From the NCBI GenBank assembly GCA_900696645.1, contig CAADGV010000009.1, positions 1-64,000 of the forward strand: a stretch of 64,000 nt of DNA. Direction: 5' to 3'. Shown here one piece after another: positions 12,239 to 63,554 of this stretch. Origin of the DNA: an uncultured Chlorobiota bacterium. GTDB taxonomy: Bacteria > Bacteroidota > Ignavibacteria > UBA10030 > UBA6906. Position 1 is the first letter of the stretch, and every line of letters begins with the position of its first letter. A model generated the notes under the pieces. It was not told the origin of the DNA. It saw only the letters and a list, made by a program, of their open reading frames with translations, and did no database searches. The position numbers and the translations under genes are program-made.

Positions 12239-12289
12239 TCGGAATTTGCGAAGAATGGCTGGAATGAGAGATATAGAAGAAAGAATGTG

Positions 12290-12322: not shown

Positions 12323-12331
12323 AGGCGTGGA

Positions 12332-13297: not shown

Positions 13298-13454
13298 AAT
13301 GGGGAAGGGCTTAGTGGAACAACTTGCCAGAACCTACACAAAGAAAATGAGCAATGCAACACGAACTGTTCTCTCCCTCGAATCTGAGAAAGAAATGCGG
13401 TTCAGATCATCGGATTCGGCATCACGGTTGCTCGTCTCCGGATGAAGAATCCAG

Positions 13455-43437: not shown

Positions 43438-43441
43438 GTTC

Positions 43442-44800
43442 ATGGCAGAGTCTATTCTTATTGTTGATGATGAGGAAATCATTCGCGAATCCCTTTCGTT
43501 TGTTCTGAAGAAAGAAGGATACTCGGTTCAGGAAGCCGAAAATGGCAAAGTGGCGCTCGAATATATCAAAGAACGCGCCTTCGATCTCGTCATCACCGAC
43601 ATCGAAATGCCTGAGATGAAGGGGATTGAGTTGATGGAGAATATCTCACGTCTGAGTCCTGAAACCATGGTTGTCGTGATTACCGCATACGGTTCCATTG
43701 AAAGTGCCATTGCCGCTCTTCGCAGAGGTGCCATCGACTACGTGCTGAAGCCGGTGGAGTTCGATGAATTGCTGGTAAAGACAAGGCGGCTGTTGGGCGA
43801 CCGCCGGATGAGGTTGGAGAACAAGCTCCTTCGGAGCGAGATTCACCGGCACTATGATTTTGACAACATCATCGGCAAAAGTTCCGCAATGCAGAGGGTG
43901 TTCGAGACCATCAAAAAAGTCGCGCAAACGGACGGCACCGTGTTGATTACGGGAAAGAGCGGAACGGGAAAAGAACTTGTTGCGCGGGCCGTTCATTATA
44001 ACAGCAAGCGAAGGGAAAAGCCGTTCATTCCAGTAAACTGCGGCGCAATCGTCGAAAACCTGTTTGAGAGTGAATTGTTCGGCCACAAAAAAGGAGCCTT
44101 TACGGGAGCCTCAATGGATCGTGTCGGGTTCTTCAAATCCGCCGACGGCGGAACAATCTTTCTTGACGAGGTGAGCGAGATTCCTCTGCATTTGCAAGTG
44201 AAACTTCTGCGTGCCATCGAAATGAAGCAGGTGACGCCCGTTGGTACTTCACATGAAATACCGGTCGATGTCCGGATTATTGCCTCCACCAATCGCAACC
44301 TCGAAAAGGCTGTACAAGACGGAAAGTACCGCGAGGATTTGTTCTACCGGTTGAATGTGGTCGGTATAGAACTGCCGCCGCTGAGCGAACGTATTGATGA
44401 TATTCCGCTGCTTGTCCAGCATTTTGTATCGCGGTATGCAACCGAAATGAACAAAGATGTGCGCGGCGTTGACCATGAAGCTATGAAACTTCTTCTTGCC
44501 CACAACTGGAAAGGAGAAGTTCGCGAGTTGGAGAACATCATCGAGCGGGCGACAATCTTTGCCGAAGGCAACATGATTACGACGAAAGAACTTCCGGCCT
44601 TTTTCGGGCAATCCACCGGCTCGTATTCATTCGGCGGCAACAAGCCTCTCAAAGAAGCTGTTGCCGAGTTTGAGCGTGAATACATCGGCCACATGCTGCG
44701 CATTCATCCAAGCAAGGATGAACTTGCAAAGGCGCTGAACATCAGCCTCTCTTCACTCTATCGAAAGATTGAAGAACTCAACATCCCTTCTCAGAGTTGA
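43442..44800 (+). CDS. NtrC-family sigma-54-dependent response regulator
   Basis: This is a 452-residue protein. The receiver (about 1-120) has ILIVDDEEIIRESL and VITDIEMPEMKG. The AAA+ domain (about 140-375) has Walker A (GKSGTGKELV), a complete GAFTGA loop, Walker B (GGTIFLDEVSEI) and FYRLNVVGIELPP. The Fis-type helix-turn-helix closes the protein (about 425-448, KDELAKALNISLSSLYRKI). It is the best candidate activator of the sigma-54 promoters in and after the cytochrome cluster (56891 and 62314). The promoter targets are inferred from proximity only. Confidence 0.95.
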   Translation: MAESILIVDDEEIIRESLSFVLKKEGYSVQEAENGKVALEYIKERAFDLVITDIEMPEMKGIELMENISRLSPETMVVVITAYGSIESAIAALRRGAIDYVLKPVEFDELLVKTRRLLGDRRMRLENKLLRSEIHRHYDFDNIIGKSSAMQRVFETIKKVAQTDGTVLITGKSGTGKELVARAVHYNSKRREKPFIPVNCGAIVENLFESELFGHKKGAFTGASMDRVGFFKSADGGTIFLDEVSEIPLHLQVKLLRAIEMKQVTPVGTSHEIPVDVRIIASTNRNLEKAVQDGKYREDLFYRLNVVGIELPPLSERIDDIPLLVQHFVSRYATEMNKDVRGVDHEAMKLLLAHNWKGEVRELENIIERATIFAEGNMITTKELPAFFGQSTGSYSFGGNKPLKEAVAEFEREYIGHMLRIHPSKDELAKALNISLSSLYRKIEELNIPSQS

Positions 44801-46096: not shown

Positions 46097-46151
46097 CCCT
46101 ACCATTGTCAATTTGCATAGCGCAGCCTCAACGATAACACCGATATTTTAC

Positions 46152-48341
46152 ATGAGTTTACGACATCTCTCTCTTCGAAGTGTGAACATTGCCGCTATGA
46201 TGGTTGCGGCAGTAGCCCTATGGAATCCACTCAATCTCAAGGCACAGGACAAGGACGATTGCCTTGTTTGCCACTCGGAGAAGTCGTTGACAATGGAACG
46301 GAGAGGCAAATCCGTTTCGCTGTTTGTGGACGGGGCGCACTTTGACAAATCTGCCCACGCAGACCTGGGATGCGTTTCGTGTCACGAAGGATTCAAAGCC
46401 GATCAGTTACCGCACGCCAAACGCATCAAGCCTGTTGAGTGCGGATCGTGCCACGCCGATGAGAAATTCACCAACTACCGGCAAAGCGTTCACGGCTCGT
46501 TGAAGAAAGGCAAGGCGGCTGCGTCGTGCACTGATTGTCATACGGCTCATGCAATTCAGAAATTGTCCGAGAAGCCGCTGCCGGAGAAGAAAGCATTCAC
46601 CGAACAGATTTGCGCAACCTGCCACTCGGCGGTCGCAGCTAAGTACATGGCTTCAGATCACGGGAAAGCCCTTACTGCAGGAACACAGGGCGCGCCGACC
46701 TGCATCGATTGTCACGGCGAGCATGAAGTAGTAGCACCCGCGTCCGAGGATGCCCAGACAAGCCGCAAACATGAAGCGAGGATGTGCTTGAGCTGCCACC
46801 TTGATGATGAAGAAGTCAGAAGGCGAGTAGGCCCCTCGGCGGGTTTCATTGCAAGCTACGAAAACAGCGTTCATGGCAGGGCGCTACAGCATGGCAACGA
46901 GGGAGCTGCGACGTGCAGCGATTGTCATGGCAGCCATGAAATGAAGAAGGGGTCGGATCCTAACTCCAAAGTATCGAAGAAACATATCGCCGAGACATGC
47001 GGACAGTGCCACGGTGATGTTCAAGAACAATTCGATTCAAGCATTCACGGCAAAGCGCTGATGAGGGGTATTACAGCCTCCGCAACATGCACGGATTGCC
47101 ATGGCGAGCACAATATTCTCTCCCCCCATGATCCTCGTTCACCTGTTGCCCCGCGAAATGTCTCGTCGCAAGTATGTACTCCGTGTCACGCCTCGCTGAA
47201 GCTGACGGAAAAATACGGGTTGGCGGCAAACCGGTTCAAGAGCTTTGCAGATAGCTATCATGGACTCGCAAGCAGAGGAGGCTCTGTGGAGGTGGCAAAT
47301 TGCGCGAGTTGCCACGGCGTGCACGACATCAAACCCTCGACGGATTCAACATCCCTCATCCATCCGGCAAACCTTGTGAAAACCTGCGGTTCGTGTCATC
47401 CCGGCGCCAACGAGAACTTCACCAAGGGTAGAGTGCACGTTATTGCAACCTCAGGTGATGATGCGATTCTCTACTACATTGCTACGGGCTACATTGCTCT
47501 TATCATTCTGACTATTGGGGGTATGCTGATTCATAATGTGTTGGATTTTGTCAAGAAGTCGAAGCGACAGCTCATGTATCGGCGCGGGCTTCTCGAGCGC
47601 GAGCATCATTCCAACAAGCTGTATCTCCGCATGTCGCTTAACGAGCGCGTTCAACACGCTACGCTCGCAATCAGCTTCATGATTCTTGTGGTGACGGGTT
47701 TTGCATTGCGCTACCCCGATGCGTGGTGGGTGGTTCCCGTTCGCGACATCAGTCCCTGGATGTTTGAACTGCGCAGTCTATTGCACCGCATTGCCGGTGT
47801 TGTGCTGGTGCTGGTGAGTCTCTATCACGTCTACTATGTTCTCGCCGTGCCGCGGGGAAAACGTCTCCTGCGGGATTTGTTGCCGGTTCGTCAAGACATA
47901 GCGGATGTTGTTGGATCCTTCAGATACTATCTCGGATTTTCCGAAGAAAGGCCGCAGTTCGGCCGATTCAGCTACATCGAAAAAGCGGAGTATTGGGCAC
48001 TGATCTGGGGAACGGTAGTCATGGCTGTCACCGGCGTGATTCTGTGGTTTGACAATACGTTTATGGGTCTGTTCACGAAAATGGGTTGGGATATCGCACG
48101 GACAATCCACTTCTATGAGGCATGGCTTGCAACGCTCGCCATTATCGTCTGGCATTTCTATTTCGTCATCTTCAATCCTGATTCGTATCCTCTGAACCTT
48201 GCATTCTGGAAGGGAACTCTGACTGAAGAAGAGATGGCCGAAGAACACCCGCTGGAACTGGCAGACATCAAGAAACGTGAAGAGGCGGAACTGGCCGAAC
48301 AAGCCAAACAGGAAAAGGAACAACAGCAGACAACAACCTGA
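46152..48341 (+). CDS. 13-haem cytochrome c fused to a cytochrome b domain (CbcL-like architecture)
   Basis: The protein has 729 residues from the ATG at 46152, chosen because a clean signal peptide follows (MSLRHLSLRSVNIAAMM, cleavage near LKAQ). The periplasmic part (about 28-440) holds 13 CXXCH motifs, from DCLVCH to TCGSCH. The C-terminal part has five membrane helices (about 450-680) with His residues suited to b-haem (HRIAGVVLVLVSLYHVYY, HFYEAWLATLAIIVWHFY). The tail is rich in Glu, Lys and Gln. Joining periplasmic c-haems to a quinone-reactive b domain is the plan of Geobacter CbcL, a menaquinol oxidase of metal-reducing chains. It likely passes quinol electrons to periplasmic cytochromes. 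Confidence 0.9.
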   Translation: MSLRHLSLRSVNIAAMMVAAVALWNPLNLKAQDKDDCLVCHSEKSLTMERRGKSVSLFVDGAHFDKSAHADLGCVSCHEGFKADQLPHAKRIKPVECGSCHADEKFTNYRQSVHGSLKKGKAAASCTDCHTAHAIQKLSEKPLPEKKAFTEQICATCHSAVAAKYMASDHGKALTAGTQGAPTCIDCHGEHEVVAPASEDAQTSRKHEARMCLSCHLDDEEVRRRVGPSAGFIASYENSVHGRALQHGNEGAATCSDCHGSHEMKKGSDPNSKVSKKHIAETCGQCHGDVQEQFDSSIHGKALMRGITASATCTDCHGEHNILSPHDPRSPVAPRNVSSQVCTPCHASLKLTEKYGLAANRFKSFADSYHGLASRGGSVEVANCASCHGVHDIKPSTDSTSLIHPANLVKTCGSCHPGANENFTKGRVHVIATSGDDAILYYIATGYIALIILTIGGMLIHNVLDFVKKSKRQLMYRRGLLEREHHSNKLYLRMSLNERVQHATLAISFMILVVTGFALRYPDAWWVVPVRDISPWMFELRSLLHRIAGVVLVLVSLYHVYYVLAVPRGKRLLRDLLPVRQDIADVVGSFRYYLGFSEERPQFGRFSYIEKAEYWALIWGTVVMAVTGVILWFDNTFMGLFTKMGWDIARTIHFYEAWLATLAIIVWHFYFVIFNPDSYPLNLAFWKGTLTEEEMAEEHPLELADIKKREEAELAEQAKQEKEQQQTTT

Positions 48342-48344
48342 ACC

Positions 48345-50354
48345 ATGAAGAAGCTCTCAAAACATCTTCTTGTGATTGCTGTAAGTCTGGCAGCGGGTAT
48401 GTCATCGCTGCTCGCGCAGGAAAACGATGAGTGCTTCTTATGCCACGGGGACAAAACACAGGTCGGAAAACGCAAGGGGAAGACGATCCCCGTTTTTGTT
48501 GCCGAAAAGAAGTTTGCGAACTCGGTTCACGGATCGCTTGGCTGCATTTCGTGTCACGCGGATCTTGAAGGGAAAGAACTACCGCACGAGGATGAACTTG
48601 CGGTTGTTGAATGCGGCACATGCCACGATACGCAACAGGAGCAGCACGCTAGATCCTTGCACGGCAAAGCAATACTTCGCGGTGATCCACTTGCACCGCA
48701 ATGCAAGGATTGTCACGGATATCATGATGTAGTGTCGGGGAAAGATCCACTTTCGCCGGTTGCGGCCCTGCAGGTGCCGTACCTCTGTGGCAAATGCCAT
48801 CAAGAGGGGACGCCGGTGACCAAACAGCGCACAATTCATCAGGATCATATTCTTGAGAATTTCTCCGAGAGTATTCACGGCGAGGGGTTATTGCGGAAAG
48901 GTCTCATTGTTGCTCCCCATTGCGCGACCTGTCACACCGCCCACTCTATTCTGCCGCATACCGACCCCGCTTCATCTATTGCACGAAGGAATATTGCGGC
49001 AACATGCACGAAGTGTCATGCTCAAATCGAAACAGTTCACCGCAAGGTGATTCGCGGTGAGTTGTGGGAGAAACAAGCACACATCCTTCCGGCATGTGTG
49101 GATTGTCATCAGCCTCACAAAGTCAGAAAAGTCTTTTACTCCCTCGGCATGTCGAACGCCGATTGCCTGCGTTGCCACAGTAACAAAGATCTGAAGTCCG
49201 GCGAAGACGGGCGATCGCTGTATGCCCGTGAAGAAGATCTGAGTCATTCCCGCCACTCGAAAATTGCGTGCAGCCAGTGTCACTCGGAAGTGAACGCATC
49301 ACACGTCCGACCTTGCGAAACGATTACGAAAAAGGTTGACTGTGCATCCTGCCATGAAGAAGTCGGCCAGCAGTTTGCGAACAGCATGCACGGCCAGCTT
49401 GTTGCAAAAAATGATCCGAACGGGCCGACATGCAAAGAGTGTCACGGAACGCATACAGTCAAGGGCAAACTCGATCCGAAGTCACCGATTTTTGCAACGA
49501 ATATTCCCGGTTTGTGTGCACGCTGTCATCGTGAGGGAGAAAAAGCGGCCGTCCGCTACACCGGCGAACAACACGACATTATTGCTCACTACACTGAAAG
49601 TATTCATGGCAAGGGCTTGATGAAGAGCGGGCTCACGGTTACAGCAACGTGCACAAACTGCCATACTGCCCACAGTGTTTTGCCAAAGAATGACCCGGCA
49701 TCGAGTGTGAACCCCAGAAACGTGCCCGCCACATGCGGTCGCTGCCATCACGGCATAGAGGATCAGTTCGAGAAGAGTATTCACTTCAAAAAGATCGGTC
49801 AGACGGATAAACAATTGCCGATTTGCAGCGATTGCCATAGCGCGCACACCATTCAGCGTGCCGATGCCCAAGGGTTCAAGCTGGAAATCATGTCGAAGTG
49901 CGGCCGCTGTCATGAAGATATTGCAAGAACGTATTTCGACACGTATCACGGCAAAGTGTCGCAGCTGGGTTACACTAAAACTGCAAAATGCTATGATTGT
50001 CACGGCGCCCATGACATTCTACCAACATCCGATCCGGAATCACATTTGAGTCGTGAGAATGTCGTCGCCACATGTCAGAAATGCCACGAAGGGGCTACGC
50101 GCAGATTCGCCGGTTATCTTACGCACGCAACACACCACGACCCCGAGAAGTATCCGATTTTGTTCTGGACGTTTTGGGGGATGACTTCGTTACTGGTTGG
50201 CACGTTCGTGTTCGGGGGTGTGCATACGCTTCTCTGGCTTCCCCGTGCTGTGCAAATGCGTCGGGAATTGAACAAAGAAAAAACTGAGAAGCTGAGAGCT
50301 TTGGTTCCAAAGCAGGAAGAAAAGCCACCGGAAGATGAAGGCACGACAGGGTAA
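48345..50354 (+). CDS. 19-haem membrane-anchored cytochrome c
   Basis: This 669-residue protein has a signal peptide (about 1-25, SSLLAQE) and 19 CXXCH motifs, from ECFLCH to TCQKCH, spread over about 28-590. Distal His residues in SVHG/SIHG repeats would give bis-His haems. One C-terminal membrane helix (about 605-628, FWTFWGMTSLLVGTF) and a short cytoplasmic tail follow. It starts 3 bp after the fused cytochrome and 25 bp before a separate cytochrome b gene, so it looks like the two-gene counterpart of that fusion. It probably wires the membrane quinol site to the periplasm. Confidence 0.92.
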   Translation: MKKLSKHLLVIAVSLAAGMSSLLAQENDECFLCHGDKTQVGKRKGKTIPVFVAEKKFANSVHGSLGCISCHADLEGKELPHEDELAVVECGTCHDTQQEQHARSLHGKAILRGDPLAPQCKDCHGYHDVVSGKDPLSPVAALQVPYLCGKCHQEGTPVTKQRTIHQDHILENFSESIHGEGLLRKGLIVAPHCATCHTAHSILPHTDPASSIARRNIAATCTKCHAQIETVHRKVIRGELWEKQAHILPACVDCHQPHKVRKVFYSLGMSNADCLRCHSNKDLKSGEDGRSLYAREEDLSHSRHSKIACSQCHSEVNASHVRPCETITKKVDCASCHEEVGQQFANSMHGQLVAKNDPNGPTCKECHGTHTVKGKLDPKSPIFATNIPGLCARCHREGEKAAVRYTGEQHDIIAHYTESIHGKGLMKSGLTVTATCTNCHTAHSVLPKNDPASSVNPRNVPATCGRCHHGIEDQFEKSIHFKKIGQTDKQLPICSDCHSAHTIQRADAQGFKLEIMSKCGRCHEDIARTYFDTYHGKVSQLGYTKTAKCYDCHGAHDILPTSDPESHLSRENVVATCQKCHEGATRRFAGYLTHATHHDPEKYPILFWTFWGMTSLLVGTFVFGGVHTLLWLPRAVQMRRELNKEKTEKLRALVPKQEEKPPEDEGTTG

Positions 50355-50378
50355 GGAATAACGATCACGAGTTCATAC

Positions 50379-51272
50379 ATGCAAGATGCTTCACACACAG
50401 CAGAAGTGGTAGTGCCGCCGTCAGCACTCACTGAAGTTGTCGCAGAAGAAAGACAGTTTCTTCGCTTCTCGCGGCTCAACAGAATTCTGCATATTGTTAT
50501 GATTGTCAGCTTCATGAGCCTTGCACTTACCGGCATGACTCTGAAGTTCTCATACACCGGCTGGGCTGTGATTCTGGGGAAGCTCTTTGGCGGGTTCGAA
50601 TCGGCGGGGTACATTCACCGGCTCGCTGCGGTGTTGATGGTCGGCATTTTCGTAGCCCACATTGCCAATCTCGTTCAGAGAAAACGAAAAGAATTTGGTT
50701 CATGGAAAGCGCTTCTCTTTGGCCCTGATTCCATGCTTTTCAACAAGAAAGATTGGCAGGATTTTGTCGGCAACATCAAATGGTTTCTTGGCAAAGGGCC
50801 CCGCCCGAAGTATGGGCGATGGACATATTGGGAGAAGTTCGATTATTTCGCAGTGTTCTGGGGAATCTTTGTGATCGGGTCAACCGGCTTCATGCTGTGG
50901 TTCTCCGAGTTCTTCACGCACTTTATGCCCGGTCAGTTGCTAAATGTCGCCACAATTATCCACAGTGACGAAGCATTACTTGCGGTCGGCTTCATCTTCA
51001 CGGTGCATTTCTTCAACACGCATCTTCGCCCGGAAAAATTTCCGATGGATATTTGTGTGTTCAGCGGGAGGATGGATTTTGAAGAATTCAAACGCGACAA
51101 GCCATTGGAATACGAAGCTCTTCTGAAAAGCGGCGAGTTGGAAAAATATCTGGTCGAACCGTATCCACCGATTGTCATCAGGGCTATACGTGTATTCGGT
51201 TGGACTGCGCTCACGATCGGATTCAGCATCGTTGTGTGGATTATCTACGCAATGCTGTTTGCCTATCGCTGA
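50379..51272 (+). CDS. Cytochrome b subunit (hydrogenase/formate dehydrogenase-type b561 fold)
   Basis: The 297-residue protein has five membrane helices: about 35-58, 74-98, 155-178, 190-212 and 262-285. LNRILHIVMIVSF, GYIHRLAAVLMVG, HSDEALLAVGF and VHFFNTH carry His ligands for b-haems. It resembles the membrane part of the fused protein at 46152 without the c-haems. It should be the quinone-reactive partner of the 19-haem cytochrome just upstream. Confidence 0.9.
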   Translation: MQDASHTAEVVVPPSALTEVVAEERQFLRFSRLNRILHIVMIVSFMSLALTGMTLKFSYTGWAVILGKLFGGFESAGYIHRLAAVLMVGIFVAHIANLVQRKRKEFGSWKALLFGPDSMLFNKKDWQDFVGNIKWFLGKGPRPKYGRWTYWEKFDYFAVFWGIFVIGSTGFMLWFSEFFTHFMPGQLLNVATIIHSDEALLAVGFIFTVHFFNTHLRPEKFPMDICVFSGRMDFEEFKRDKPLEYEALLKSGELEKYLVEPYPPIVIRAIRVFGWTALTIGFSIVVWIIYAMLFAYR

Positions 51273-52040: not shown

Positions 52041-53537
52041 ATGAAACGAAGACTTCCCGATAGCTTTTATAACCCGATAACCATAACCGGCGCGGCGCTT
52101 GCAGTCGTCAGCTTTGCGACCATCATCTTTCTCACATTCGTTGAAGTATTTCAGGAGCACGCGCCCGCATATATCGGCATTATTTCGTATGTGATGCTGC
52201 CGGTGCCTCTCATTGTAGGACTGTTGCTCATTCCTGTCGGGGTGTGGCGGGAGAAGCGCCGACGTGCGAAGGGCTTGCCTGCAAGCCGCATGTCATTCCA
52301 TGTGGATCTGAACAACTCGCGACAGCGTTCCGCGATCATATTGTTTACATCTGCCACCGTCATCTTCCTGCTGTTCACTGCGTACGGAAGTTACCGCACG
52401 TTTGAGTGGACAGAATCAACAGAGTTTTGCGGCGAAACGTGCCATTCCGTGATGGAGCCCGAGTTTGTTGCGTACCAAAACTCGCCCCACGCCCGAGTGA
52501 AATGCGTTGACTGCCATGTCGGTTCGGGTGCGGGATGGTATGTAAGATCGAAGTTGTCGGGAGCGTACCAGGTGTACGCCGTTGCAGTGAACAATTATCC
52601 TCGCCCGATTCCCACGCCGATTGCAAATTTGCGCCCTGCTCAAGAGACCTGCGAGCAGTGTCACTGGCCGTCACACTTTGCAGGCGAGAAGAAGTACGTG
52701 AATACCTACTTCAAGTCGGATGAGGAAAACACGCGCTGGACGATCGCCCTGCTGATGAAAACCGGCGGCGGCAGCACCGACCGCGGCCCTACGAGCGGCA
52801 TTCACTGGCATATGAATATCGCTAACGAAGTCACGTACGTGGCAACCGACAGCCAGAGGCAAGTAATCCCGTGGGTACGCATGATGAACAAGAATACCGG
52901 TGAGGTCACAGAGTACTTCTCCACCGAAGAAAATATTTCGGACGAGGATCTGGCAAAGCTTCCGAAGAACAAAATGGACTGCATCGATTGCCACAATCGC
53001 CCGTCACACATCTACCGGCCTCCCGTGCGGATTGTTGACCAGAGCATGACGTTGGGGCGTATCAGTACGGAGTTGCCGAACGTACGCGCCGCATCCGTTA
53101 GCGCCCTTGTGCAGCCCTACTCATCAACCGCCGCGGCAATGGACAGCATCCCGCTGCTGTTGCGGGAGTATTACCGCGACAACTATCCTTCTGTAGCCGG
53201 AGAGAAAGAAGAATTGATCCGGCTTGCCTCCGAGGAATTGAAGTTGCAGTACAGTCGTAATTTCTTTCCCCGCATGAAGGTGAGTTGGAAGGCATACCCC
53301 AACAACGTCGATCATATGACAAACATCGGCTGTTTCCGTTGCCATGGAGGCAAGCATGTGAGTCCCGGAGGCAAAGCGATCTCCAGCGATTGCAATACGT
53401 GCCACACAATACTCTATCAAGGTACCGCCCCCGTTCCGACGACAATGAATATTGCGGGGCTTGAATTCGAGCATCCTGAAGATATCGGCGATATCTGGAA
53501 GGAAACGTTGTGCAGAGATTGCCATACCGGGCAATAG
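52041..53537 (+). CDS. Heptaheme NapC/NirT-type cytochrome (ImcH-like)
   Basis: This is a 498-residue protein. Three membrane helices (about 13-33, 43-69, 97-117) precede a periplasmic domain with seven haem sites. The first is CGETCH (Cys130-His135, a CX3CH motif). The others are KCVDCH, TCEQCH, DCIDCH, GCFRCH, DCNTCH and LCRDCH. SPHARVKCVDCHVG is typical of the NapC/NirT quinol-dehydrogenase fold. Seven haems and three helices match what I recall of Geobacter ImcH, the inner-membrane cytochrome needed for high-potential acceptors. It should oxidise menaquinol and reduce periplasmic cytochromes. Confidence 0.9.
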   Translation: MKRRLPDSFYNPITITGAALAVVSFATIIFLTFVEVFQEHAPAYIGIISYVMLPVPLIVGLLLIPVGVWREKRRRAKGLPASRMSFHVDLNNSRQRSAIILFTSATVIFLLFTAYGSYRTFEWTESTEFCGETCHSVMEPEFVAYQNSPHARVKCVDCHVGSGAGWYVRSKLSGAYQVYAVAVNNYPRPIPTPIANLRPAQETCEQCHWPSHFAGEKKYVNTYFKSDEENTRWTIALLMKTGGGSTDRGPTSGIHWHMNIANEVTYVATDSQRQVIPWVRMMNKNTGEVTEYFSTEENISDEDLAKLPKNKMDCIDCHNRPSHIYRPPVRIVDQSMTLGRISTELPNVRAASVSALVQPYSSTAAAMDSIPLLLREYYRDNYPSVAGEKEELIRLASEELKLQYSRNFFPRMKVSWKAYPNNVDHMTNIGCFRCHGGKHVSPGGKAISSDCNTCHTILYQGTAPVPTTMNIAGLEFEHPEDIGDIWKETLCRDCHTGQ

Positions 53538-53661: not shown

Positions 53662-54117
53662 ATGACCAGCGATCCCGACGATCACGTACAACCCGGGAAG
53701 CGTGATTTTCTGAAACTCATTCTGGGCGGCAGCCTTGTCGCATGGGCTGCCTCGATTCTCTATCCGCTCTTTGCATATCTCAAACCACCCAAGCAAGCCG
53801 AAGTCGAAGTAACAAGCGTCAAAGTCGGCACACTGTCGTCGATTGAAAAAGACAGCGGCATGATCGTCCGGTTTGGCAATAAGCCCGTTATCCTTGTTCG
53901 CTCGGCTGCCGGTGAACTGCGTGCGTTCGATGCAACATGCACGCATCTCGATTGCACCGTGCAGTACCACAAGGAGATGGGTGTAATCTGGTGTGCCTGT
54001 CACAACGGCAAGTACGATTTCAACGGGCGCAATATTGCCGGCCCCCCGCCGCGGCCTCTCGATGAATACCGCGTCGTGCTGCAAGGAGAGGAGGTTCTCA
54101 TCTCGAAAAAATCATGA
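53662..54117 (+). CDS. qcrA: Rieske [2Fe-2S] protein of a bc-type complex
   Basis: This is a 151-residue protein. The N-terminus has a Tat-like signal with Lys-Arg in place of Arg-Arg ([12 protein letters not shown], about 12-23) followed by a membrane anchor. The Rieske boxes are CTHLDC (Cys93, His95, Cys98) and CACHNGKY (Cys111, Cys113, His114), giving cluster ligands Cys93, His95, Cys111, His114 and a disulfide Cys98-Cys113. GGAGG precedes the ATG. The stop overlaps the cytochrome b start (ATGA). It should take electrons from quinol at the Qo site and hand them to the c-type subunit. Confidence 0.94.
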
Positions 54118-55193
54118 AAACCTTCCTGACAAAAATCTATACATATGTTGACGAGCGTGTGCAGCTCGAAGACCTTGTTCAGTTCATGGGAAAGAAATAT
54201 GTTCCCGTGCACCGGCATTCTGTGTGGTACTACTTTGGCGGCATCACGCTGTTTCTTTTCCTCATCCAGGTTGTGACGGGCATTCTTCTCCTCCTGTATT
54301 ACAAAAGCGGGGAAGAACTTGCCTTCGAGAGCATTCAGTTCATCATGTCGAAAGTGCAGTTCGGCTGGCTGATTCGTTCGATTCACAGTTGGGCCGCAAA
54401 CCTGTTTATTCTTGCTGCCGTGATTCACATGTTCAGCGTTTTTTTCGAAAGGGCGTATCGCAAACCGCGAGAACTCACGTGGCTCACAGGGATGTTGATG
54501 CTGTTCCTCGGTCTCGGCTTCGGCTTTAGCGGCTACCTGCTTCCGTGGAATGAACTCGCGTTCTTCGCAACCAAAGTCGGCACCGACATTGCAGGCGTCG
54601 TTCCGGTCATCGGCAAACCGATTTTGATATTCCTTCGGGGAGGAGAAGACGTAACCGGAGCGACACTCTCACGGTTTTTCGGTTTTCATGTTGCCGTTTT
54701 TCCGGGCATCTTCACGGTGTTGTTGGGAATCCACCTTCTCCTTGTGCAGCGTCAGGGGATGAGCGAGCCGCTTGGCGTGGAGGCAGGGGCTGCTGCTCCG
54801 CAAAAGACAATGCCGTTCTTTCCCAACTTCCTGCTCAGGGATCTTCTTCTTTGGCTGATTGTGCTGAACATTCTGGCTATTCTTGCTGTGTTTTTCCCGT
54901 GGGAATTGGGGCAGAAGGCCGACCCCTTTGCTCCGGCTCCGGCAGGAATTCTGCCCGAATGGTATTTTCTCTTCATGTTCCAGACGCTCAAGATGATTCC
55001 TGCGCAAGTCTGGTTCATTGACGGAGAAGTGCTGGGGATAGTGACATTCGGGATAGCCGGCTTGCTGTGGATGCTGGTTCCTTTCTGGGACAGAAAAAGT
55101 GCCCGCGGAGAACAAAACCGGACCACGACATATATCGGAATATTCGTTGTCGGGTACATCATCATTCTCACTATTCTCGGGTGGCTGCTATGA
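54114..55193 (+). CDS. qcrB: Cytochrome b (b6/subunit IV-like) of a bc-type complex
   Basis: This 359-residue protein has about eight membrane helices. Haem ligands are [16 protein letters not shown] (13 residues between His) and [17 protein letters not shown] (14 between), the b6-type spacing. The Qo motif [10 protein letters not shown] lies in the subunit IV-like C-terminal part, so b6 and IV are fused in one chain. It overlaps the Rieske gene upstream and the 11-haem cytochrome gene downstream by four bases each. The three genes should build one quinol:cytochrome c oxidoreductase. Confidence 0.94.
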
Positions 55194-56653
55194 AACGACT
55201 CGCTGCAATATCGGCGTTGCTGGTTGTGTGTGCAAGCTACTCATTCGGAGCGGATGAATGCGTGAAGTGCCATCAGTTGCTGGGTGACAAGCCGACGCAA
55301 CTATTCAAAAAGGATATTCATGCTTCGAAGGGAGTCTCGTGTGCGGATTGCCACGGCGGAAACCCCAGGTCTGACGACATGGAACGGGCAATGAGCAAAG
55401 CCGCCGGGTTTATCGGCGTGCCGAAGGGCGATGCGATTTCCGAAGCATGCGCAAAGTGTCATGCGGATGAAGCAAAGATGAAATCATACGGCTCGGCACT
55501 GCCCGTAAATCAATGGAAGACATTGCAGACGAGCGTTCACGGCAAACTGGCCGTGGCCGGTAAGGAACATATCGCGCAATGCACAACATGCCATGGCGCG
55601 CATGGCATAGTGTCGGCGAAGAATCCTGCTTCTCCCGTTCACCCGTTGAATGTTGTGAAGACATGCGCAACGTGTCATTCCAATGCCGTCTATATGCGGT
55701 CGTACAACCCGTCGTTGCCTGTCGATCAGAATGAGAAATACAGAACAAGCGTTCACGGCATGCGTAACGCGAAAGGGGATACGAAAGTGGCTGAATGCGC
55801 AAGCTGTCATGGTGCGCACGACATCCGCTCGGCGAAAGATTTGAAGTCGAAAGTGTACGCGACAAACCTGCCGGCAACATGCGGGTCATGTCACAGTAAC
55901 GCGGAATACATGAAGGAGTATGATATTCCGACTGACCAGCTTGAGAAATTCTCCTCAAGTGTGCACGGTATTGCACTGCTGCAAAAGCATGATTTAGGAG
56001 CCCCGGCATGCAACAGTTGTCACGGCAATCATGCGGCGACCCCGCCCGGTGTCGAGTCCATTTCTAAAGTGTGCGGTACATGCCATGCGTTAAATGCTGA
56101 TCTGTTTTCGGCGAGCCCGCATAAGAGGGCGTTCGATGATCTGCAACTCCCTGAATGCGAAACCTGTCACGGCAATCATGAAATTGTTGCGGCAACGAAT
56201 GAGCTTCTTGGCACAGCGCCTGAAGCAACATGCGGCAGATGTCACAGTGAAGAAGACAACGCAAAAGGATTTCAAGCTGCGGCGTTGATGCGCCTTCTTG
56301 CCGACAGTCTCGAATCGGGTGAACAACAGGCTCAACGGCTTGTGGACGAAGCTGAACAAAAGGGGATGGAGATCAGCGAAGCAAAATACAAACTCCGGGA
56401 TGCACGGCAGGCTCGATTGGAAGCTCGAACGATGGTACATGCTTTTGACAGCGATAAGTTCAGCGATGTGATTGGAAAGGGCCTTACTGTTGCCTCAACG
56501 GTACACGGCGAGGCGCAAGCCGCGGTTGACGAGTATTATTTCCGTCGTGTCGGTTTGGGGATAGCGACCTTGATTATTTCAGTTTTGGTTGTTTCATTAT
56601 ACCTGACCATTCGACGCATTGAGAAAAAGCAACAGAAAGCAACTGTTCTCTAA
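55190..56653 (+). CDS. 11-haem cytochrome c, c-subunit of the Rieske/cytochrome b complex
   Basis: The protein has 487 residues from the ATG at 55190, which overlaps the cytochrome b stop and begins a clear signal peptide ([16 protein letters not shown], cleavage near FGAD). The longer frame back to 55067 would abolish it. Eleven CXXCH motifs (ECVKCH to TCGRCH) fill about 23-370, a coiled-coil stretch follows (about 385-440), and a C-terminal helix (about 455-478) anchors it. It takes the place of cytochrome c1 or f. An 11-haem subunit would let the complex discharge electrons into a periplasmic haem network rather than to a small cytochrome. Confidence 0.92.
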
Positions 56654-56948: not shown

Positions 56949-58235
56949 ATGAAAACGTTCACTCCTTTCGTTCTTTCTTTCGCACTTATTTCGTTCTTGG
57001 TTCAAGCGACTGCCTCAGCGCAGGTCATCAACGGTCGCCTAATCGGCTCATTCTACACGTACGAGAAGTACGATACAGTCGATGTCTCGAAGAGATTTGT
57101 GCGCGGGTTCCAGTCCGCTATTTTCGATGCAGCGTTCTCCGACTTCAGCATTCACACCCATTTCCAGGTTTCGGGGATGTTGCAGAAGAAACTCGATGAA
57201 CGCCCCGACTATCGCTTTTACTATGTGTACGGACAGTGGAAGAATATCTTCAATACGGCGGATCTTTCGTTCGGACGCGTTCCGTATTTCGCCGGCGTCG
57301 GCAACGGCACAATCGACGGAGGATTGTTGACGCTCCGTTTTGCGGAAAACAAATTCCGGTTCACAGCCTACGGCGGACAAACGACACCTGTTGAGTACGA
57401 GCTGCGCGAGTGGAAGAAGCTGAAGAACAATTTTACCGTCGGCGGCCAGTTCCTCGTGAACGCAATCGAGAATGCGCGCATAGGGATCAGCTACATCAAC
57501 CGCCATCGTGAGCGCGTCGGATACTGGGCCTCCCGTGCCGACTCGCTGTTCAATCCCTTCCTTGTCTATGTCATGCCCGAAACGGAAAAAGAACAGTACG
57601 TCAGCGGCGATGTGTCGTACAGGTTCGGCGCTTCCCGTGTGTACGGCAGGTATGATTATGATTTGAGTTTCAAGAAAATGCAGCGCGGACAGTTGGGTAT
57701 CCGGCTTGGCTTGTTCGACGACTTGAGTGTCAGCGGCGACTTCATTCGCCGTGAGCCCCGGGTGATGTACAATTCGTTCTTCTCACTGTTCGATTTGAAG
57801 TCGGTGGATGAGTTTGAACTCGGCGCCGACTATATCCTGTTCCCCGACGTTCGTGCGTTTGCCCGTGGTGCGTACGTGAAGTACTCCGACGACAAAGGCT
57901 TCCGCTATACTGTGGGTCTTGTTCACCGCTACATCGGATTGTCATATCGCGGCACAACCGGCTATGCCGGCGAGCAGGATAATGCAAGCATCCAGGCAAC
58001 ATACCCGTTCTTCGACAATATGTTCATCCCCTCGTTGGGGGTTGCATACATCACGTACAAACTGGACAAGTACGCAAAGCGTGAAGAGGGTATTGCAACA
58101 ACTCTCGGCGCAACATTTCGCCCCATGTCGCAGCTCTCGTTCGACCTGCAGGGACAGTGGCTGCAGAACAAGATTGTCCGTAGTGACGTCCGTGTCTTTG
58201 GGAAGGTCAACTACTGGTTTACGACACAGTTCTGA
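56949..58235 (+). CDS. Porin-like outer-membrane beta-barrel protein
   Basis: The protein has 428 residues from the ATG at 56949; the sigma-54 promoter at 56891 rules out a GTG start at 56907. A signal peptide (about 1-24, ATASAQV) is followed by alternating hydrophobic strands, frequent Tyr/Phe girdle residues and a C-terminal Phe (VNYWFTTQF), the signature of an outer-membrane barrel. There are no cysteines or haem motifs. No specific family is recognised. Its place just before three exported cytochromes suggests that it could sheath a haem wire, as barrels do in porin-cytochrome conduits. A substrate porin is the main alternative. Confidence 0.82.
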   Translation: MKTFTPFVLSFALISFLVQATASAQVINGRLIGSFYTYEKYDTVDVSKRFVRGFQSAIFDAAFSDFSIHTHFQVSGMLQKKLDERPDYRFYYVYGQWKNIFNTADLSFGRVPYFAGVGNGTIDGGLLTLRFAENKFRFTAYGGQTTPVEYELREWKKLKNNFTVGGQFLVNAIENARIGISYINRHRERVGYWASRADSLFNPFLVYVMPETEKEQYVSGDVSYRFGASRVYGRYDYDLSFKKMQRGQLGIRLGLFDDLSVSGDFIRREPRVMYNSFFSLFDLKSVDEFELGADYILFPDVRAFARGAYVKYSDDKGFRYTVGLVHRYIGLSYRGTTGYAGEQDNASIQATYPFFDNMFIPSLGVAYITYKLDKYAKREEGIATTLGATFRPMSQLSFDLQGQWLQNKIVRSDVRVFGKVNYWFTTQF

Positions 58236-58380
58236 TACGCTGTGAATCAAAGACACGAATGACGCACAAAGAACTCAGTATGAACACCGAGAGAAATAAC
58301 CCGCAATCCAACTTTGTGGTAAATTATCCGCCTGACGCTGCGCGGCATGCGGATCAGCCGCTGGCTGAGTGTCTTTTCCT

Positions 58381-58422
58381 GTCTGCCTCCGTGTAACCAA
58401 GGAGGCAGACACGATTTTTTTT
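58381..58422 (+). terminator. Rho-independent terminator after the porin-like gene
   Basis: A perfect 10-bp stem (GTCTGCCTCC / GGAGGCAGAC, loop of ten bases) is followed by ACGA and eight T residues. It makes the porin-like gene a single-gene transcript unless read-through is allowed. The cytochrome start at 58454 is 32 bp beyond. Confidence 0.92.
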
Positions 58423-58453
58423 ATGGTTGAGTTTCTAAGTAAAGGATAAGATT

Positions 58454-59536
58454 ATGATACGCCGATACATCATACTTCTCATTGCATGTGCCGTCGGGCT
58501 TGGCGTTGTTGTTCTTTCGGAGAAATCTCCACTGAATGCAGGAGGAAGCTCTCCTGACGGAAGGAGAGTCCCGACGGTGAAGTTTTCGCACGAATTCCAC
58601 ATCAAAGATGCCGGAGTTGAGGATTGCGCAACCTGTCACGCGGCGGCGAAAACGAGCAAGTTCATGTCGGACAATCTCGCTGCCAATCATGACGCATGTA
58701 TCACCTGCCATGAGGAACAGGTAAGCGATCCGGAAATGATTCAATGCGGGTACTGCCACAAGAACACCAGTGATTTCCAGGCTGCTCCGCAGGTGAAACG
58801 GGACCTGATTTTCTCGCATGAAGCACACGTTGCAATGGAGGGAGTTGAATGCGCCACGTGTCACGCCGGTGTGGAGAACGTCGCCAACGTAACGGCAGCG
58901 AATTTCCCTTCGATGGCAACATGCAACACGTGTCACAACGACAGAAAAGCCACGAATACCTGCGAAGCCTGCCACACGAATTTTGTCACTCTGATTCCTC
59001 CCGATCATGAGCGATCCGATTTTTCAAGAAATCATCGCGATATGACACGTCTCGGAGCGTTGAATGCCGATTGCCAGATGTGTCACAAGGAAACATTCTG
59101 CCAGCAATGCCATCTCGATCCGGGATTGAAATCGTACAGCTACGGCCGCGGCAGAGATTTGGCGACAGAACCGTCGCACAAAACTTCGACAAAGGATTCG
59201 CCCAGACAAACATTGTTGCAGAACGTCCACGATCTGAATTACCGCTTTTCGCACGGCATTGATGCAAAAGCGAGAGAAGCAGACTGTCAATCATGCCATT
59301 CAGTACAGACATTCTGCGCGGATTGCCACAGCGCCGGAGGCAATATTTCGCAGTTGCGGTTCAAGCCTTCATCGCATAGCATTCCCGGATTCACAACGCT
59401 CGGACGCGGCTCAGGCGGTGGGTTGCATGCCGAAGAGGCTCGGCGCGATATGGAAACCTGTATCACTTGTCATGATGTAACCGGAAGAGACCCGTCGTGT
59501 CTTACCTGCCATATGGATAATGGTCGGGTCCGGTAG
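58454..59536 (+). CDS. 12-haem periplasmic cytochrome c
   Basis: This is a 360-residue protein with an N-terminal signal peptide or uncleaved anchor (about 1-29, IILLIACAVGLGVVVL). Twelve CXXCH motifs (DCATCH to SCLTCH) carry flanking His residues of the class III/c7 style (KFSHEFHIKDAGVEDCATCH). AAGGAT precedes the ATG. No lipobox is present, so it should be periplasmic or inner-membrane tethered. Between the barrel gene and two lipoprotein cytochromes, it is the natural internal partner of a trans-outer-membrane conduit. Confidence 0.9.
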   Translation: MIRRYIILLIACAVGLGVVVLSEKSPLNAGGSSPDGRRVPTVKFSHEFHIKDAGVEDCATCHAAAKTSKFMSDNLAANHDACITCHEEQVSDPEMIQCGYCHKNTSDFQAAPQVKRDLIFSHEAHVAMEGVECATCHAGVENVANVTAANFPSMATCNTCHNDRKATNTCEACHTNFVTLIPPDHERSDFSRNHRDMTRLGALNADCQMCHKETFCQQCHLDPGLKSYSYGRGRDLATEPSHKTSTKDSPRQTLLQNVHDLNYRFSHGIDAKAREADCQSCHSVQTFCADCHSAGGNISQLRFKPSSHSIPGFTTLGRGSGGGLHAEEARRDMETCITCHDVTGRDPSCLTCHMDNGRVR

Positions 59537-59607
59537 AGTGTAGTTCCAGTAACAGATTGTTGAGAAAGCAAAGTCGAATATACTTCGAATCACAAGGAGA
59601 CATCGTC

Positions 59608-60765
59608 ATGAAAAAACCATTCACTCCATTAGCAATGCTCGCAGTGCTGGTTGCATTTGCGCTTGTGCTTTTCGGTTGCGAAGGGCCTGCAGGTTCCGAT
59701 GGCAAGGACGGAAAGGACGGGAAAGACGGGACTACGGGCGTTCTGAACCTCGAAGGATTTGCACCGAACATCAATTGCGGCTCGTGCCACAATCCCGACA
59801 TTGACACAACATACTTCTTGTGGGCACGTCGGTATCAATGGGAGCGTTCGCTGCATGCCTATGGCGGCGATCTGGAGCGCAACGGCCCCGATTGCGCCGG
59901 ATGTCACACGACCGAGGGTTTTATTGAAAGATGGAAGAATAATTTTGCAACGCAGACCGTGGCGCCGAAGAGCAACCCCAGCCCGCCCGGATGCTTTGCC
60001 TGCCATTCTCCGCACTCACGGGGTGACTTCTCTCTGCGTAGCTCCAATCCGGTGACACTTGCCTCCACCATTGTCGGGTATTCTGCCGCGACGTTTGATT
60101 ATGGTAAGGGGAACGTGTGCGCACAATGTCATCAACCACGTTCATTGAACCCGAGGCCCGATACCTCGAAATATGCTGCTTCCGATACCATTGTCATCAC
60201 ATCGTCGCGATGGTACCCGCACTACGGCGTACAGGCGCAGATGCTGATGGGAACAGGAGGCTTCCAGTTCCGGGGAACGGCGTATGAGAACTCCGGTCAC
60301 ACGCTTAACACCGCCATCAAGGAAGAAGGCTGCGTTGCGTGCCACATGGCGTCACAAGTGTATCCGCCCGATCTCGGTGCCGGACGCGGAGGCGGACATA
60401 CGATGAAAATCCGGTACTCGTCAACGGAAGCAGCAACGGATACCCTCTTCGTGCTGGCGGGATGTAACGTGAGCGGCTGCCACGGAACGGGCGGGTTCAC
60501 GAAGGCAACGTTGCTTGCATCCGAAAAGGCAATTGAAGATTCGCTGCATTCCTTGTTCACTCTGCTTCGTCAACGGAACTGGGTGACTGCGTCGGGAAGC
60601 ATCAACGCAAGTACTGGCAACCCGCTGCGGATCAGTCCTGCGTACAGGGCCGGGGCTCTCTACAACTACTTCTTTATCGAGCATGATGCGAGCCGCGGCA
60701 TGCACAACAAGAAATACACTCAGGCATTGCTCAACTCATCGCTGCAAGCATTGCGAACACCTTAA
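59608..60765 (+). CDS. Hexaheme lipoprotein cytochrome with collagen-like linker
   Basis: The protein has 385 residues from the ATG at 59608, behind AAGGAGA. The signal peptide ends in the lipobox LFGC (Cys24). A short Gly-X-Y run follows (GSDGKDGKDGKDGTTG), which would hold the haem domain off the membrane. Haem motifs are NCGSCH, DCAGCH, GCFACH, VCAQCH, GCVACH and one CX4CH site (CNVSGCH). The C-terminal 120 residues lack haem motifs. It is likely an outer-membrane lipoprotein, possibly exposed on the surface. It is co-directional with the next lipoprotein cytochrome, 13 bp away. Confidence 0.88.
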   Translation: MKKPFTPLAMLAVLVAFALVLFGCEGPAGSDGKDGKDGKDGTTGVLNLEGFAPNINCGSCHNPDIDTTYFLWARRYQWERSLHAYGGDLERNGPDCAGCHTTEGFIERWKNNFATQTVAPKSNPSPPGCFACHSPHSRGDFSLRSSNPVTLASTIVGYSAATFDYGKGNVCAQCHQPRSLNPRPDTSKYAASDTIVITSSRWYPHYGVQAQMLMGTGGFQFRGTAYENSGHTLNTAIKEEGCVACHMASQVYPPDLGAGRGGGHTMKIRYSSTEAATDTLFVLAGCNVSGCHGTGGFTKATLLASEKAIEDSLHSLFTLLRQRNWVTASGSINASTGNPLRISPAYRAGALYNYFFIEHDASRGMHNKKYTQALLNSSLQALRTP

Positions 60766-60778
60766 CGTGGTGACGATT

Positions 60779-61855
60779 ATGAAAACGAGAATTGTAGTTC
60801 TCACAATCATCTTTAGTGCAGCCGTTCTCTGGAATGGCTGCACGGAACTCAAGGAGGGCCTGCCCCCGGTTTCGCCCGGAACGCAGGTTCACCTCGACAG
60901 CTGGCTTGATACAGCGTCGACGAATTTTCACGGCACCGTTCTCAAGGCCGGAAGCGCGACGGTTGCGTCATGCCTTGTGTGTCACGGGCAGGATTACGAC
61001 GGCGGCAGCTCGCAGGTTTCCTGCATCACCTGTCATAACGCGACAGGCGCGAATATTCACGGCCGCGGATTCGAAGATCCGTCATCCCCTAACTTTCACG
61101 GCAAGGCAATTGCGGCGAACAACTGGGATATGCGTCCGTGTCAAACATGCCACGGGGCAAGTTACGCCGGCGGCACAGTGCCTTCGTCTTGCAGAACGTG
61201 CCACAATCAACCCGGAGGGCCGGAAAACTGCGTAACATGTCACGGCACGACGAATCCCGCGCCACCGCGCGATCTCAACGGCAACACTGCACGAACTGCC
61301 CGCGGAGTCGGTGCCCATCAGATTCACTTCCTCGGAAGTTCGCTGGCATACCCGATTCTCTGTAACGAGTGTCATGTGGTTCCGGGGCCGACGTACGCTC
61401 CCGGCCATATCGATCAGACTCCCGGTGCTGAAGTAATCATGAACAACGAACTGACCCGAACGGTTACAAACAAGCCCGGAACTCCGAACTACAGCCCGAA
61501 TCTTCCATTGTTCACCCCGAATCCGGCGTACGACCCGATTACCTTGAAATGCTCGTCAACGTATTGTCACGGGAATTTCAAGAACGGCAATCCGCAATTT
61601 GCTCCCGTGTGGAACGATCCGAGTGGAAGTCAGATGGCGTGCGGTACATGTCATGGCGATGTAACTCGCCCGACATTGATGTTGCGCGCCCTTCCCAAGA
61701 CGGCAGCGGAAGGCGGTTCACATCCCTCCATTCCGCAAGGATGGACTTGCGCGAACTGTCATGGCGAAGTAGTCAACGCCAACACACAAATCATCAATCC
61801 CTCGAAGCACATTAACGGCAAGCTCAATATCGCCGGCACTGAAATCGACTACTGA
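60779..61855 (+). CDS. Nonaheme lipoprotein cytochrome with CXXXXCH/CXXCH motif pair
   Basis: The protein has 358 residues from the ATG at 60779. Signal peptide with lipobox WNGC (Cys21). Eight CXXCH motifs (SCLVCH to TCANCH) and one CX4CH (KCSSTYCHG) are present. The pair CSSTYCHG followed by ACGTCHGD is the Geobacter-type CxxxxCH...CXXCH signature known from outer-surface cytochromes. The rest is Pro/Gly/Asn-rich with little helix, as in surface haem proteins. It is the last gene of the cluster, followed by a terminator at 61879. A role as terminal surface reductase is plausible. Confidence 0.88.
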   Translation: MKTRIVVLTIIFSAAVLWNGCTELKEGLPPVSPGTQVHLDSWLDTASTNFHGTVLKAGSATVASCLVCHGQDYDGGSSQVSCITCHNATGANIHGRGFEDPSSPNFHGKAIAANNWDMRPCQTCHGASYAGGTVPSSCRTCHNQPGGPENCVTCHGTTNPAPPRDLNGNTARTARGVGAHQIHFLGSSLAYPILCNECHVVPGPTYAPGHIDQTPGAEVIMNNELTRTVTNKPGTPNYSPNLPLFTPNPAYDPITLKCSSTYCHGNFKNGNPQFAPVWNDPSGSQMACGTCHGDVTRPTLMLRALPKTAAEGGSHPSIPQGWTCANCHGEVVNANTQIINPSKHINGKLNIAGTEIDY

Positions 61856-62395: not shown

Positions 62396-63160
62396 ATGAG
62401 AGATGAAGCAATCACCGCTACGGCTCAGGCTGGGGCACAAAAGACGACCTACGGACGTTCGGAACTGAAGAAGGTTTTTCACAAGAACTACTTCAAGGGT
62501 ATGGTGATTTCTTTTGTCGTCCACACAGTATTCTTGGGCTCGTACTATCTGATCAAATACCTGAACGCGGAAGACGACATTCCCATGGTATCTGTGCGTA
62601 TCATGAAGTACAGCGACCTTGGTCCGCCTCCGTCCATCTCGGCTGTGCCGCCACCGCCCGCAGTGGGTGTTGCGGCAAACGTTAAGCCGTCCATCGGCGT
62701 TCCCGTACCGGTACCCGATGCGGAAGTTACCGCCGAACAAACATTCGCTACGCAAGCCGAACTGAGTGCAGCACCTTCACCTGCGCTTGAGCAAGCCGCC
62801 GGAGTAGGTGAAGGGGTACAGATACAGCAGGATATTCTCATTGATGACGATCCGGAAATGGATGCGTTCATTCCGGTTGAGAAGCAACCGCAGATTGTCA
62901 AGCGCGTGATTCCGAAGTATCCCGATATGGCAATCCGCGCCGGACTGGAAGGGACCGTGTGGGTGAAGATTTTGGTGGATAAGGATGGCTTGCCAAAGAA
63001 GGCAGTTGTGATAAAGTCAACCGCCGAGTTGTTCAACGATCCTGCGGTTGAAGCCGCGATGGGATTCGTGTTTACTCCGGCCGTGATGAATCAAGGTCCG
63101 GTGAGAGTATGGGTGTCGATCCCGTTCAAGTTTGCGCTGAAAGACGCAGCATCCGGGTAA
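62396..63160 (+). CDS. TonB-family energy transducer protein
   Basis: The protein has 254 residues from the ATG at 62396, which follows AAGGAG. A cytoplasmic N-terminus (about 1-34), one membrane helix (about 35-56, GMVISFVVHTVFLGS), a Pro/Ala/Val-rich periplasmic linker and a C-terminal TonB domain (about 165-250) are visible. The TonB domain has VIPKYPDMAIRAGLEGTVWV and FTPAVMNQGPVRVWVSIPF. No ExbB/ExbD genes are in the window. It may energise uptake of a metal or cofactor needed by the cytochromes or hydrogenase, but its transporter is not encoded nearby. Confidence 0.9.
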   Translation: MRDEAITATAQAGAQKTTYGRSELKKVFHKNYFKGMVISFVVHTVFLGSYYLIKYLNAEDDIPMVSVRIMKYSDLGPPPSISAVPPPPAVGVAANVKPSIGVPVPVPDAEVTAEQTFATQAELSAAPSPALEQAAGVGEGVQIQQDILIDDDPEMDAFIPVEKQPQIVKRVIPKYPDMAIRAGLEGTVWVKILVDKDGLPKKAVVIKSTAELFNDPAVEAAMGFVFTPAVMNQGPVRVWVSIPFKFALKDAASG

Positions 63161-63206
63161 CAGGCGAAAGCGTGCCACGGCTCCGTTGAGCGAAAGGAAT
63201 GTAATC

Positions 63207-63554
63207 ATGCCGACGCGAGAAGAATACTGGGAGGCACTTCAAGCGAGGATTTGCGTGAGGTGTCTTGATGGAAGCGGGGACGGCAATTGCCGTATCGCAG
63301 GAGATGGATTCTGTGCAATGAAGGAATACTTACCCGCGATTGTGGACGCCATCAATTCAGTGTACAGCCATTCGATCGTTCCGTACGAGGAACAGTTGCG
63401 TAAGCATGTATGCGGCTCATGCACACACCAGTCGGCCAACGGAAACTGCTCGCTGCGCGATGAAGTTGACTGTGCACTCGACCGGTATTTTCCGCTGATC
63501 GTGGAGGTGATTGAAGAAACCCGGAAGCGATCACATATTGCGGCAAGCAGATAG
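63207..63554 (+). CDS. Small protein with two identical-spacing Cys4 motifs
   Basis: The protein has 115 residues from the ATG at 63207, behind AAAGGAA. Two repeats each carry C-X2-C-X8-C-X7-C: CVRCLDGSGDGNC then GDGFC, and CGSCTHQSANGNC then EVDC. Each is followed by a hydrophobic helix (MKEYLPAIVDAI; LDRYFPLIVEVI). The spacing suits a zinc site or an iron-sulfur cluster, two per chain. There is no signal peptide, so it should be cytoplasmic unless exported by another route. I do not recognise a characterised family. It probably shares an operon with the TonB-like gene. Confidence 0.75.
   Translation: MPTREEYWEALQARICVRCLDGSGDGNCRIAGDGFCAMKEYLPAIVDAINSVYSHSIVPYEEQLRKHVCGSCTHQSANGNCSLRDEVDCALDRYFPLIVEVIEETRKRSHIAASR

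What the first reader, a model, noticed from the sequence alone, without database searches (positions are those of the whole stretch)
56949..61855. Candidate porin-cytochrome conduit of unusual composition
A barrel with no cysteines, a 12-haem exported cytochrome and two lipobox cytochromes (6 and 9 haems) follow one another. This fits the logic of trans-outer-membrane conduits, but the barrel has no recognisable link to MtrB, OmbB or PioB families that I can see.
Basis: partly seen in the sequence, partly recalled or inferred. Interest (0 to 1): 0.75.

Follow-up and report, generated by a model that had tools for sequence, protein, structure and literature searches.

The report
Ignavibacteria porin-cytochrome electron conduit
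Four neighbouring genes very probably build an electrical feed-through across the outer membrane (a barrel, a 12-haem wire inside it and two haem-rich surface proteins); it belongs to a conduit type already reported for Ignavibacteria, though this barrel family has no entry in the common databases and its electrical function has never been tested.

Summary
At 56949-61855 there is a cysteine-free 428-aa barrel-like exported protein, a 12-haem exported cytochrome, and two lipobox cytochromes with 6 and 9 haem motifs (one CX4CH in each count). The conduit reading is well supported. The barrel matches no Pfam, NCBIfam or PDB family and is not MtrB. In 40 of 40 loci sampled across the class with enough sequence, barrel, 11-14-haem cytochrome and lipoprotein cytochrome follow one another in that order. 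Twenty genomes without the barrel also lack the 12-haem protein. Two genomes outside the class keep the order although their barrels are only 20-22% identical. The locus sits behind ImcH-like, CbcL-like and Rieske/cytochrome-b quinol-oxidising modules, so it most likely carries electrons from the quinol pool to the cell surface.

The same trio lies in a genome whose chromosome length equals that of Melioribacter roseus, an Fe(III) reducer, and its layout fits the cluster published for Ignavibacterium album (2014), called "OmbB-like" in 2020. Verdict: a new member of the known Ignavibacteria porin-cytochrome type, with 12 instead of 14 core haems and an extra collagen-stalked surface cytochrome. 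Fold predictions failed; OmbB could not be compared directly.

The parts
56949..58235 (+). Cysteine-free 428-aa outer-membrane barrel (porin component of the conduit)
   Evidence: 0 Cys, signal peptide, C-terminal Phe; no Pfam, NCBIfam or PDB family; family present in 124 of 187 good genomes of the class; amphipathic strand pattern above shuffles.
58378..58423 (+). Terminator-like hairpin with T8 tract between barrel and 12-haem gene
   Evidence: folded region -38.1 kcal/mol, z -3.8; the stem is kept in the close relative G001, absent in G002. Function inferred only.
58454..59536 (+). Exported 12-haem c-type cytochrome, the proposed wire inside the barrel
   Evidence: 12 CXXCH; family of 11-14 haems (the 14-haem form has two extra C-terminal motifs) with conserved extra His; best PDB match is the c7-type protein 3ov0, E 4e-39; absent where the barrel is absent.
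59608..60765 (+). Lipoprotein 6-haem cytochrome with collagen-like stretch (GPAGSDGKDGKDGKDG) right after the lipobox Cys; proposed surface cytochrome
   Evidence: only PDB hits are the surface cytochrome MtrC (6r2q_C E 0.0016, 7qth_A E 0.07). Patchy in the class, order relative to the 9-haem protein varies.
60779..61855 (+). Lipoprotein 9-haem cytochrome with C4xCH/C2xCH domain; proposed surface cytochrome
   Evidence: TIGR01904 E 5e-13, over cut-off; lipobox followed by C-[S/T/A]-[D/E/K]-L-K-x-[D/E/N] in most relatives.
55190..56653 (+). 11-haem cytochrome with C-terminal membrane anchor, next to Rieske and cytochrome b
   Evidence: gene neighbourhood.
53662..55193 (+). Rieske protein (53662-54117) and cytochrome b/b6-type protein (54114-55193): quinol-oxidising bc-type module
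   Evidence: Rieske PF00355 E 2e-12. Cytochrome b called from sequence; seven to eight hydrophobic segments.
52041..53537 (+). ImcH-like inner-membrane quinol oxidase: 3 TM helices, CX3CH, then six CXXCH, 498 aa
   Evidence: CX3CH at 130, 6 CXXCH; 3 TM; NapC/NirT E 2e-12. Same features as ImcH in PMC6295460.
51342..51929 (+). Four-haem c554-type periplasmic cytochrome, often the gene just before the barrel in relatives
   Evidence: PF13435 E 1e-18.
46113..51272 (+). CbcL/MtrH-like 13-haem + b-type fusion (46113-48341), 19-haem cytochrome (48345-50354) and separate b-type subunit (50379-51272)
   Evidence: Ni_hydr_CYTB; FdhG-like; 5 TM in the C-terminal part of the fusion.

Best explanation
[quoted passage not shown] Quinol is oxidised at the inner membrane by the ImcH-like, CbcL-like and Rieske/cytochrome-b modules encoded just upstream. 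Periplasmic multihaem proteins (c554-type, 11-haem and others) pass the electrons on. The 12-haem protein sits in the cysteine-free barrel and bridges the outer membrane. The 9-haem and 6-haem lipoproteins sit on the outside and deliver electrons to an external acceptor such as Fe(III), humics, an electrode or a partner cell. Shown here: the gene content, the motifs, the invariant order, joint presence and absence, the lipoprotein signals and the quinol-oxidase neighbours. Inferred: insertion of the cytochrome into the barrel, surface exposure of the lipoproteins, outward direction of flow and the kind of acceptor.
For: Barrel, 11-14-haem cytochrome, lipoprotein cytochrome in this order in 40 of 40 loci with room. 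The 12-haem family is a single full-length copy (433-571 bits) in six barrel-bearing genomes; the best partial match in 20 barrel-lacking genomes is 84 bits. Two genomes outside the class keep barrel, 11-12-haem cytochrome and lipoprotein cytochrome although the barrels are only 20-22% identical. Lipoboxes are conserved in the lipoprotein family and not conserved in the 12-haem family. The 6-haem lipoprotein's only PDB matches are surface MtrC. ImcH features are met. G181's contig of 3,300,414 bp equals the M. roseus chromosome (PMC3534657); its trio lies next to NrfC/NrfD genes, like the NrfCD cluster that PMC3534657 proposed to feed an outer-membrane-linked Fe(III) reductase. Shi 2014 reports porin, periplasmic cytochrome and outer-membrane cytochrome with an atypical motif in I. 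album.
Against: No structure model: the allowed two-sequence alignments gave mean pLDDT 26 (barrel) and 34 (12-haem). The strand count is not fixed. The 12-haem protein resembles c7-type polymers (3ov0, GSU1996-like from my own knowledge of that entry) far more than MtrA (6r2q_A only E 0.001), so it is not proven that it spans the membrane. A terminator-like hairpin separates the barrel from the cytochrome genes in this genus. No expression or activity data exist for this organism.
Confidence: 0.87

Rival explanations
1. The barrel is a substrate-specific porin and the cytochromes are subunits of a periplasmic reductase that merely sit beside it.
For: The barrel is small (about 403 residues mature), in the size range of ordinary porins; c554-type and NapC-like cytochromes lie nearby.
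Against: No porin family matches. Barrel and 12-haem protein are never separated in 40 loci and are absent together. The two lipoproteins match no catalytic reductase subunit above a curated cut-off.
Confidence: 0.05
2. The conduit works inward, taking electrons from Fe(II), a mineral or a partner cell into the quinone pool.
For: Porin-cytochrome systems can run both ways, and CbcL/MtrH/MtoC-type proteins are found in oxidisers and reducers (PMC6295460).
Against: ImcH homologues are known only from reducers, and the same trio is in M. roseus, which respires Fe(III).
Confidence: 0.12
3. The 12-haem protein is a free periplasmic wire of the GSU1996 kind and the barrel instead exports or anchors the surface cytochromes.
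For: Profile match of the 12-haem family to 3ov0 at E 4e-39 against E 0.001 for MtrA.
Against: Strict pairing of barrel and 12-haem protein as in known porin-cytochrome systems, and no other candidate for the membrane-spanning step in the cluster.
Confidence: 0.08

Closest known systems
Ignavibacterium album Pcc cluster IALB_1839-1837 (PMC4245776) and the Melioribacter roseus cluster
   Same: Porin, multihaem periplasmic cytochrome, outer-membrane cytochrome with an atypical haem motif, in this order. The M. roseus locus (identified by its exact chromosome length) encodes a member of the same barrel family, 35% identical.
   Different: 12 instead of 14 haems in the core cytochrome; two surface lipoproteins instead of one; ImcH-like, CbcL-like and bc-type modules in one island. 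Identity of IALB_1839 with this family is inferred, not tested.
Geobacter OmbB-OmaB-OmcB
   Same: Small porin, periplasmic multihaem cytochrome and outer-membrane cytochrome; literature HMMs call Ignavibacteria porins OmbB-like (PMC7399161). The 9-haem lipoprotein carries the Geobacter C4xCH/C2xCH domain.
   Different: 8-haem periplasmic and 12-haem outer cytochrome in Geobacter; sequence relation of this barrel to OmbB could not be tested here.
Shewanella MtrCAB / MtoAB / PioAB
   Same: Same logic; the 6-haem lipoprotein weakly matches MtrC.
   Different: The barrel is not MtrB; the 12-haem protein is c7-like, not DmsE/MtrA-like. True MtrB homologues occur separately in some relatives beside their own cytochrome genes.

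Membership tests
Ignavibacteria porin-cytochrome (Pcc) type | Barrel family shared with M. roseus and the rest of the class | tested here: met
   G181 = 3,300,414 bp as M. roseus.
Ignavibacteria porin-cytochrome (Pcc) type | Order porin, periplasmic multihaem cytochrome, outer-membrane cytochrome with an atypical CXnCH motif | tested here: met
   In the window the 6-haem lipoprotein lies between the 12-haem and the 9-haem gene; both lipoproteins have one CX4CH.
Geobacter OmbB-OmaB-OmcB | Barrel homologous to OmbB by sequence | not testable with these tools
   No OmbB sequence could be reached; PMC7399161 and PMC6137239 report OmbB/Pcc-like porins in Ignavibacteria.
Geobacter OmbB-OmaB-OmcB | 18-22 strands in the barrel (PMC4245776) | tested here: inconclusive
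   Crude dynamic programme gives 24-28 segments, of which I would keep about 22 by eye; shuffled controls give 23; AlphaFold failed.
MtrB/PioB | PF11854 match | tested here: not met
   hhalign probability 0.9% against MtrB of relatives.
MtrA/DmsE | TIGR03508 above its cut-off, ten haems | tested here: not met
   19.4 bits against a cut-off of 192; 12 haems.
Substrate-specific porin | Match to a known porin family | tested here: not met
   none.
ImcH (52041-53537) | Three N-terminal TM helices, CX3CH next to them, six CXXCH, about 495-519 aa | tested here: met
   definition from PMC6295460.

The most novel reading that the evidence does not exclude
The Ignavibacteria conduit arose independently of MtrCAB and perhaps of OmbB: a barrel family of its own that takes up a c7-polymer-type (GSU1996-like) cytochrome instead of an MtrA-type one, with surface cytochromes exported by a Bacteroidota-style lipoprotein signal, one of them held off the membrane by a collagen-like stalk.
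Probability: 0.3. Interest if true: 0.6.

Novelty: new member of a known kind. Interest (0 to 1): 0.4.

Why it matters
Ignavibacteria are common in sediments, hot springs and anode biofilms, and their electron conduit has been listed from genomes but, as far as the papers I could search show, never tested. The data here define the family sharply: two genes that are always together plus a surface lipoprotein, found in about two thirds of the class and almost nowhere else in the phylum sample. That gives a clean marker for metagenomes, and M. roseus is a cultured species in which it can be tested.

Tried and rejected
Structure prediction of the barrel and of the 12-haem protein: only the window sequence and one relative were admissible, and both models were of very low confidence, so no fold search was run on them. 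Sequences from the genome search were not sent to the predictor because its stated rule does not list them. A plasmid search with the barrel found nothing. The genome-contig scan found one relative only (L031). I considered that the LIAC motif at residue 12 of the 12-haem protein is a lipobox and rejected it: it is not conserved in the family. I considered that the trio might be a chance neighbourhood and rejected it on gene order and joint absence. An attempt to get the I. album genome paper failed.

Full report
What is there. The four genes are as described. The barrel (56949-58235) has 428 residues, an export signal, no cysteine and a C-terminal Phe. The next protein (58454-59536) has 12 CXXCH motifs. 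The two lipoproteins have 5 CXXCH + 1 CX4CH (59608-60765) and 8 CXXCH + 1 CX4CH (60779-61855). The barrel has no match in Pfam, NCBIfam or the PDB as a single sequence, nor in the PDB as a 32-member profile. The 12-haem protein matches cytochrome c7 and, as a family profile, best the PDB entry 3ov0. The 6-haem lipoprotein's only PDB matches are MtrC chains, weakly. The 9-haem one carries the Geobacter-type CxxxxCH/CxxCH domain.

How conserved. The barrel is found in 47 of 60 relatives (nearly always once per genome), in 124 of 187 good genomes of the class, and in 45 of 49 good genomes of one family of the class. In a sample of 296 genomes of the phylum only one genome outside the class matched, and distantly; a search of that genome's order found one more. 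I read 40 neighbourhoods with room to the right of the barrel. All have a multihaem cytochrome of 11-14 motifs next, then a lipoprotein cytochrome. Some genomes have a second lipoprotein, homologous to the 6-haem one, either before or after the other. The two genomes outside the class keep barrel, 11-12-haem cytochrome and lipoprotein cytochrome; their barrels are only 20-22% identical to the window's. Twenty class genomes without the barrel have no full-length 12-haem homologue: best 84 bits, against 433-571 bits where the barrel is present. This pairing is the strongest evidence that the two work together.

Where it sits. Upstream lie a 13-haem + b-type fusion like CbcL/MtrH, a 19-haem cytochrome with a separate b-type subunit, a c554-type cytochrome, an ImcH-like protein, Rieske and cytochrome b, and an 11-haem protein. 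The ImcH-like protein meets each feature given for ImcH in PMC6295460: three N-terminal helices, CX3CH, six CXXCH, and a length in the published range. In several relatives the trio is found without this island, so the trio is a unit of its own.

What it does. The parts and their company fit electron transfer from quinol to the cell surface. The lipoboxes of the 9-haem family are followed by small-acidic-Leu-Lys-x-acidic residues in most members. This resembles the lipoprotein export signal of Bacteroidota (own knowledge, not tested). The 6-haem family has collagen-like repeats at the same place, which may act as a stalk (inference). The 12-haem family has no conserved lipobox. Outward flow is favoured because one genome has a single contig of 3,300,414 bp, exactly the chromosome length published for M. 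roseus (PMC3534657), an Fe(III) reducer. In that genome the trio follows NrfC- and NrfD-type genes, matching the NrfCD cluster which the authors proposed to feed a hypothetical outer-membrane-linked Fe(III) reductase.

What is known. Shi et al. 2014 (PMC4245776) list one porin-cytochrome cluster in I. album (IALB_1839-1837), distant from all their other groups, with an atypical haem motif in the outer cytochrome. Arbour et al. 2020 (PMC7399161) and Fortney et al. 2018 (PMC6137239) report OmbB- or Geobacter-like porins in Ignavibacteria. The present locus is of this type. It is not MtrB: none in this genome, and no profile similarity to MtrB of sister genomes. Those MtrB genes sit beside their own cytochrome genes, and in G046 MtrB lies directly upstream of the barrel.

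Limits. Both structure predictions had very low confidence because only two sequences were admissible. The strand number is uncertain. OmbB itself could not be reached for a direct comparison. Membrane crossing, surface exposure, direction and acceptor remain inferences.

Noticed in passing
window 58378-58423: Strong hairpin with a T8 tail between the barrel and the 12-haem gene, stem kept in G001 but not in G002; may set the ratio of barrel to cytochromes.
   Followed up: partly
L046 592-6416 (G046:C60): An MtrB homologue (844 aa) lies directly upstream of this barrel in a relative: two different outer-membrane conduits in tandem. Its MtrA-like partner appears split into two open frames.
   Followed up: partly
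window 63186-63554: Small cysteine-rich protein without Pfam match, conserved beside the conduit in several relatives (L039, L041, L045, L047).
   Followed up: no
window 42025-44800: PAS histidine kinase and sigma-54 response regulator just upstream of the cytochrome island; possible regulator of it.
   Followed up: no
L040 about 12000-13300 (G002:C157): Barrel gene of a same-genus genome is interrupted by one in-frame TAG; real or assembly error is unknown.
   Followed up: no
L087 (G182:C6): Two complete copies of the trio in tandem in one genome.
   Followed up: no
window 62399-63160: TonB-like protein with N-terminal membrane anchor follows the conduit genes.
   Followed up: no
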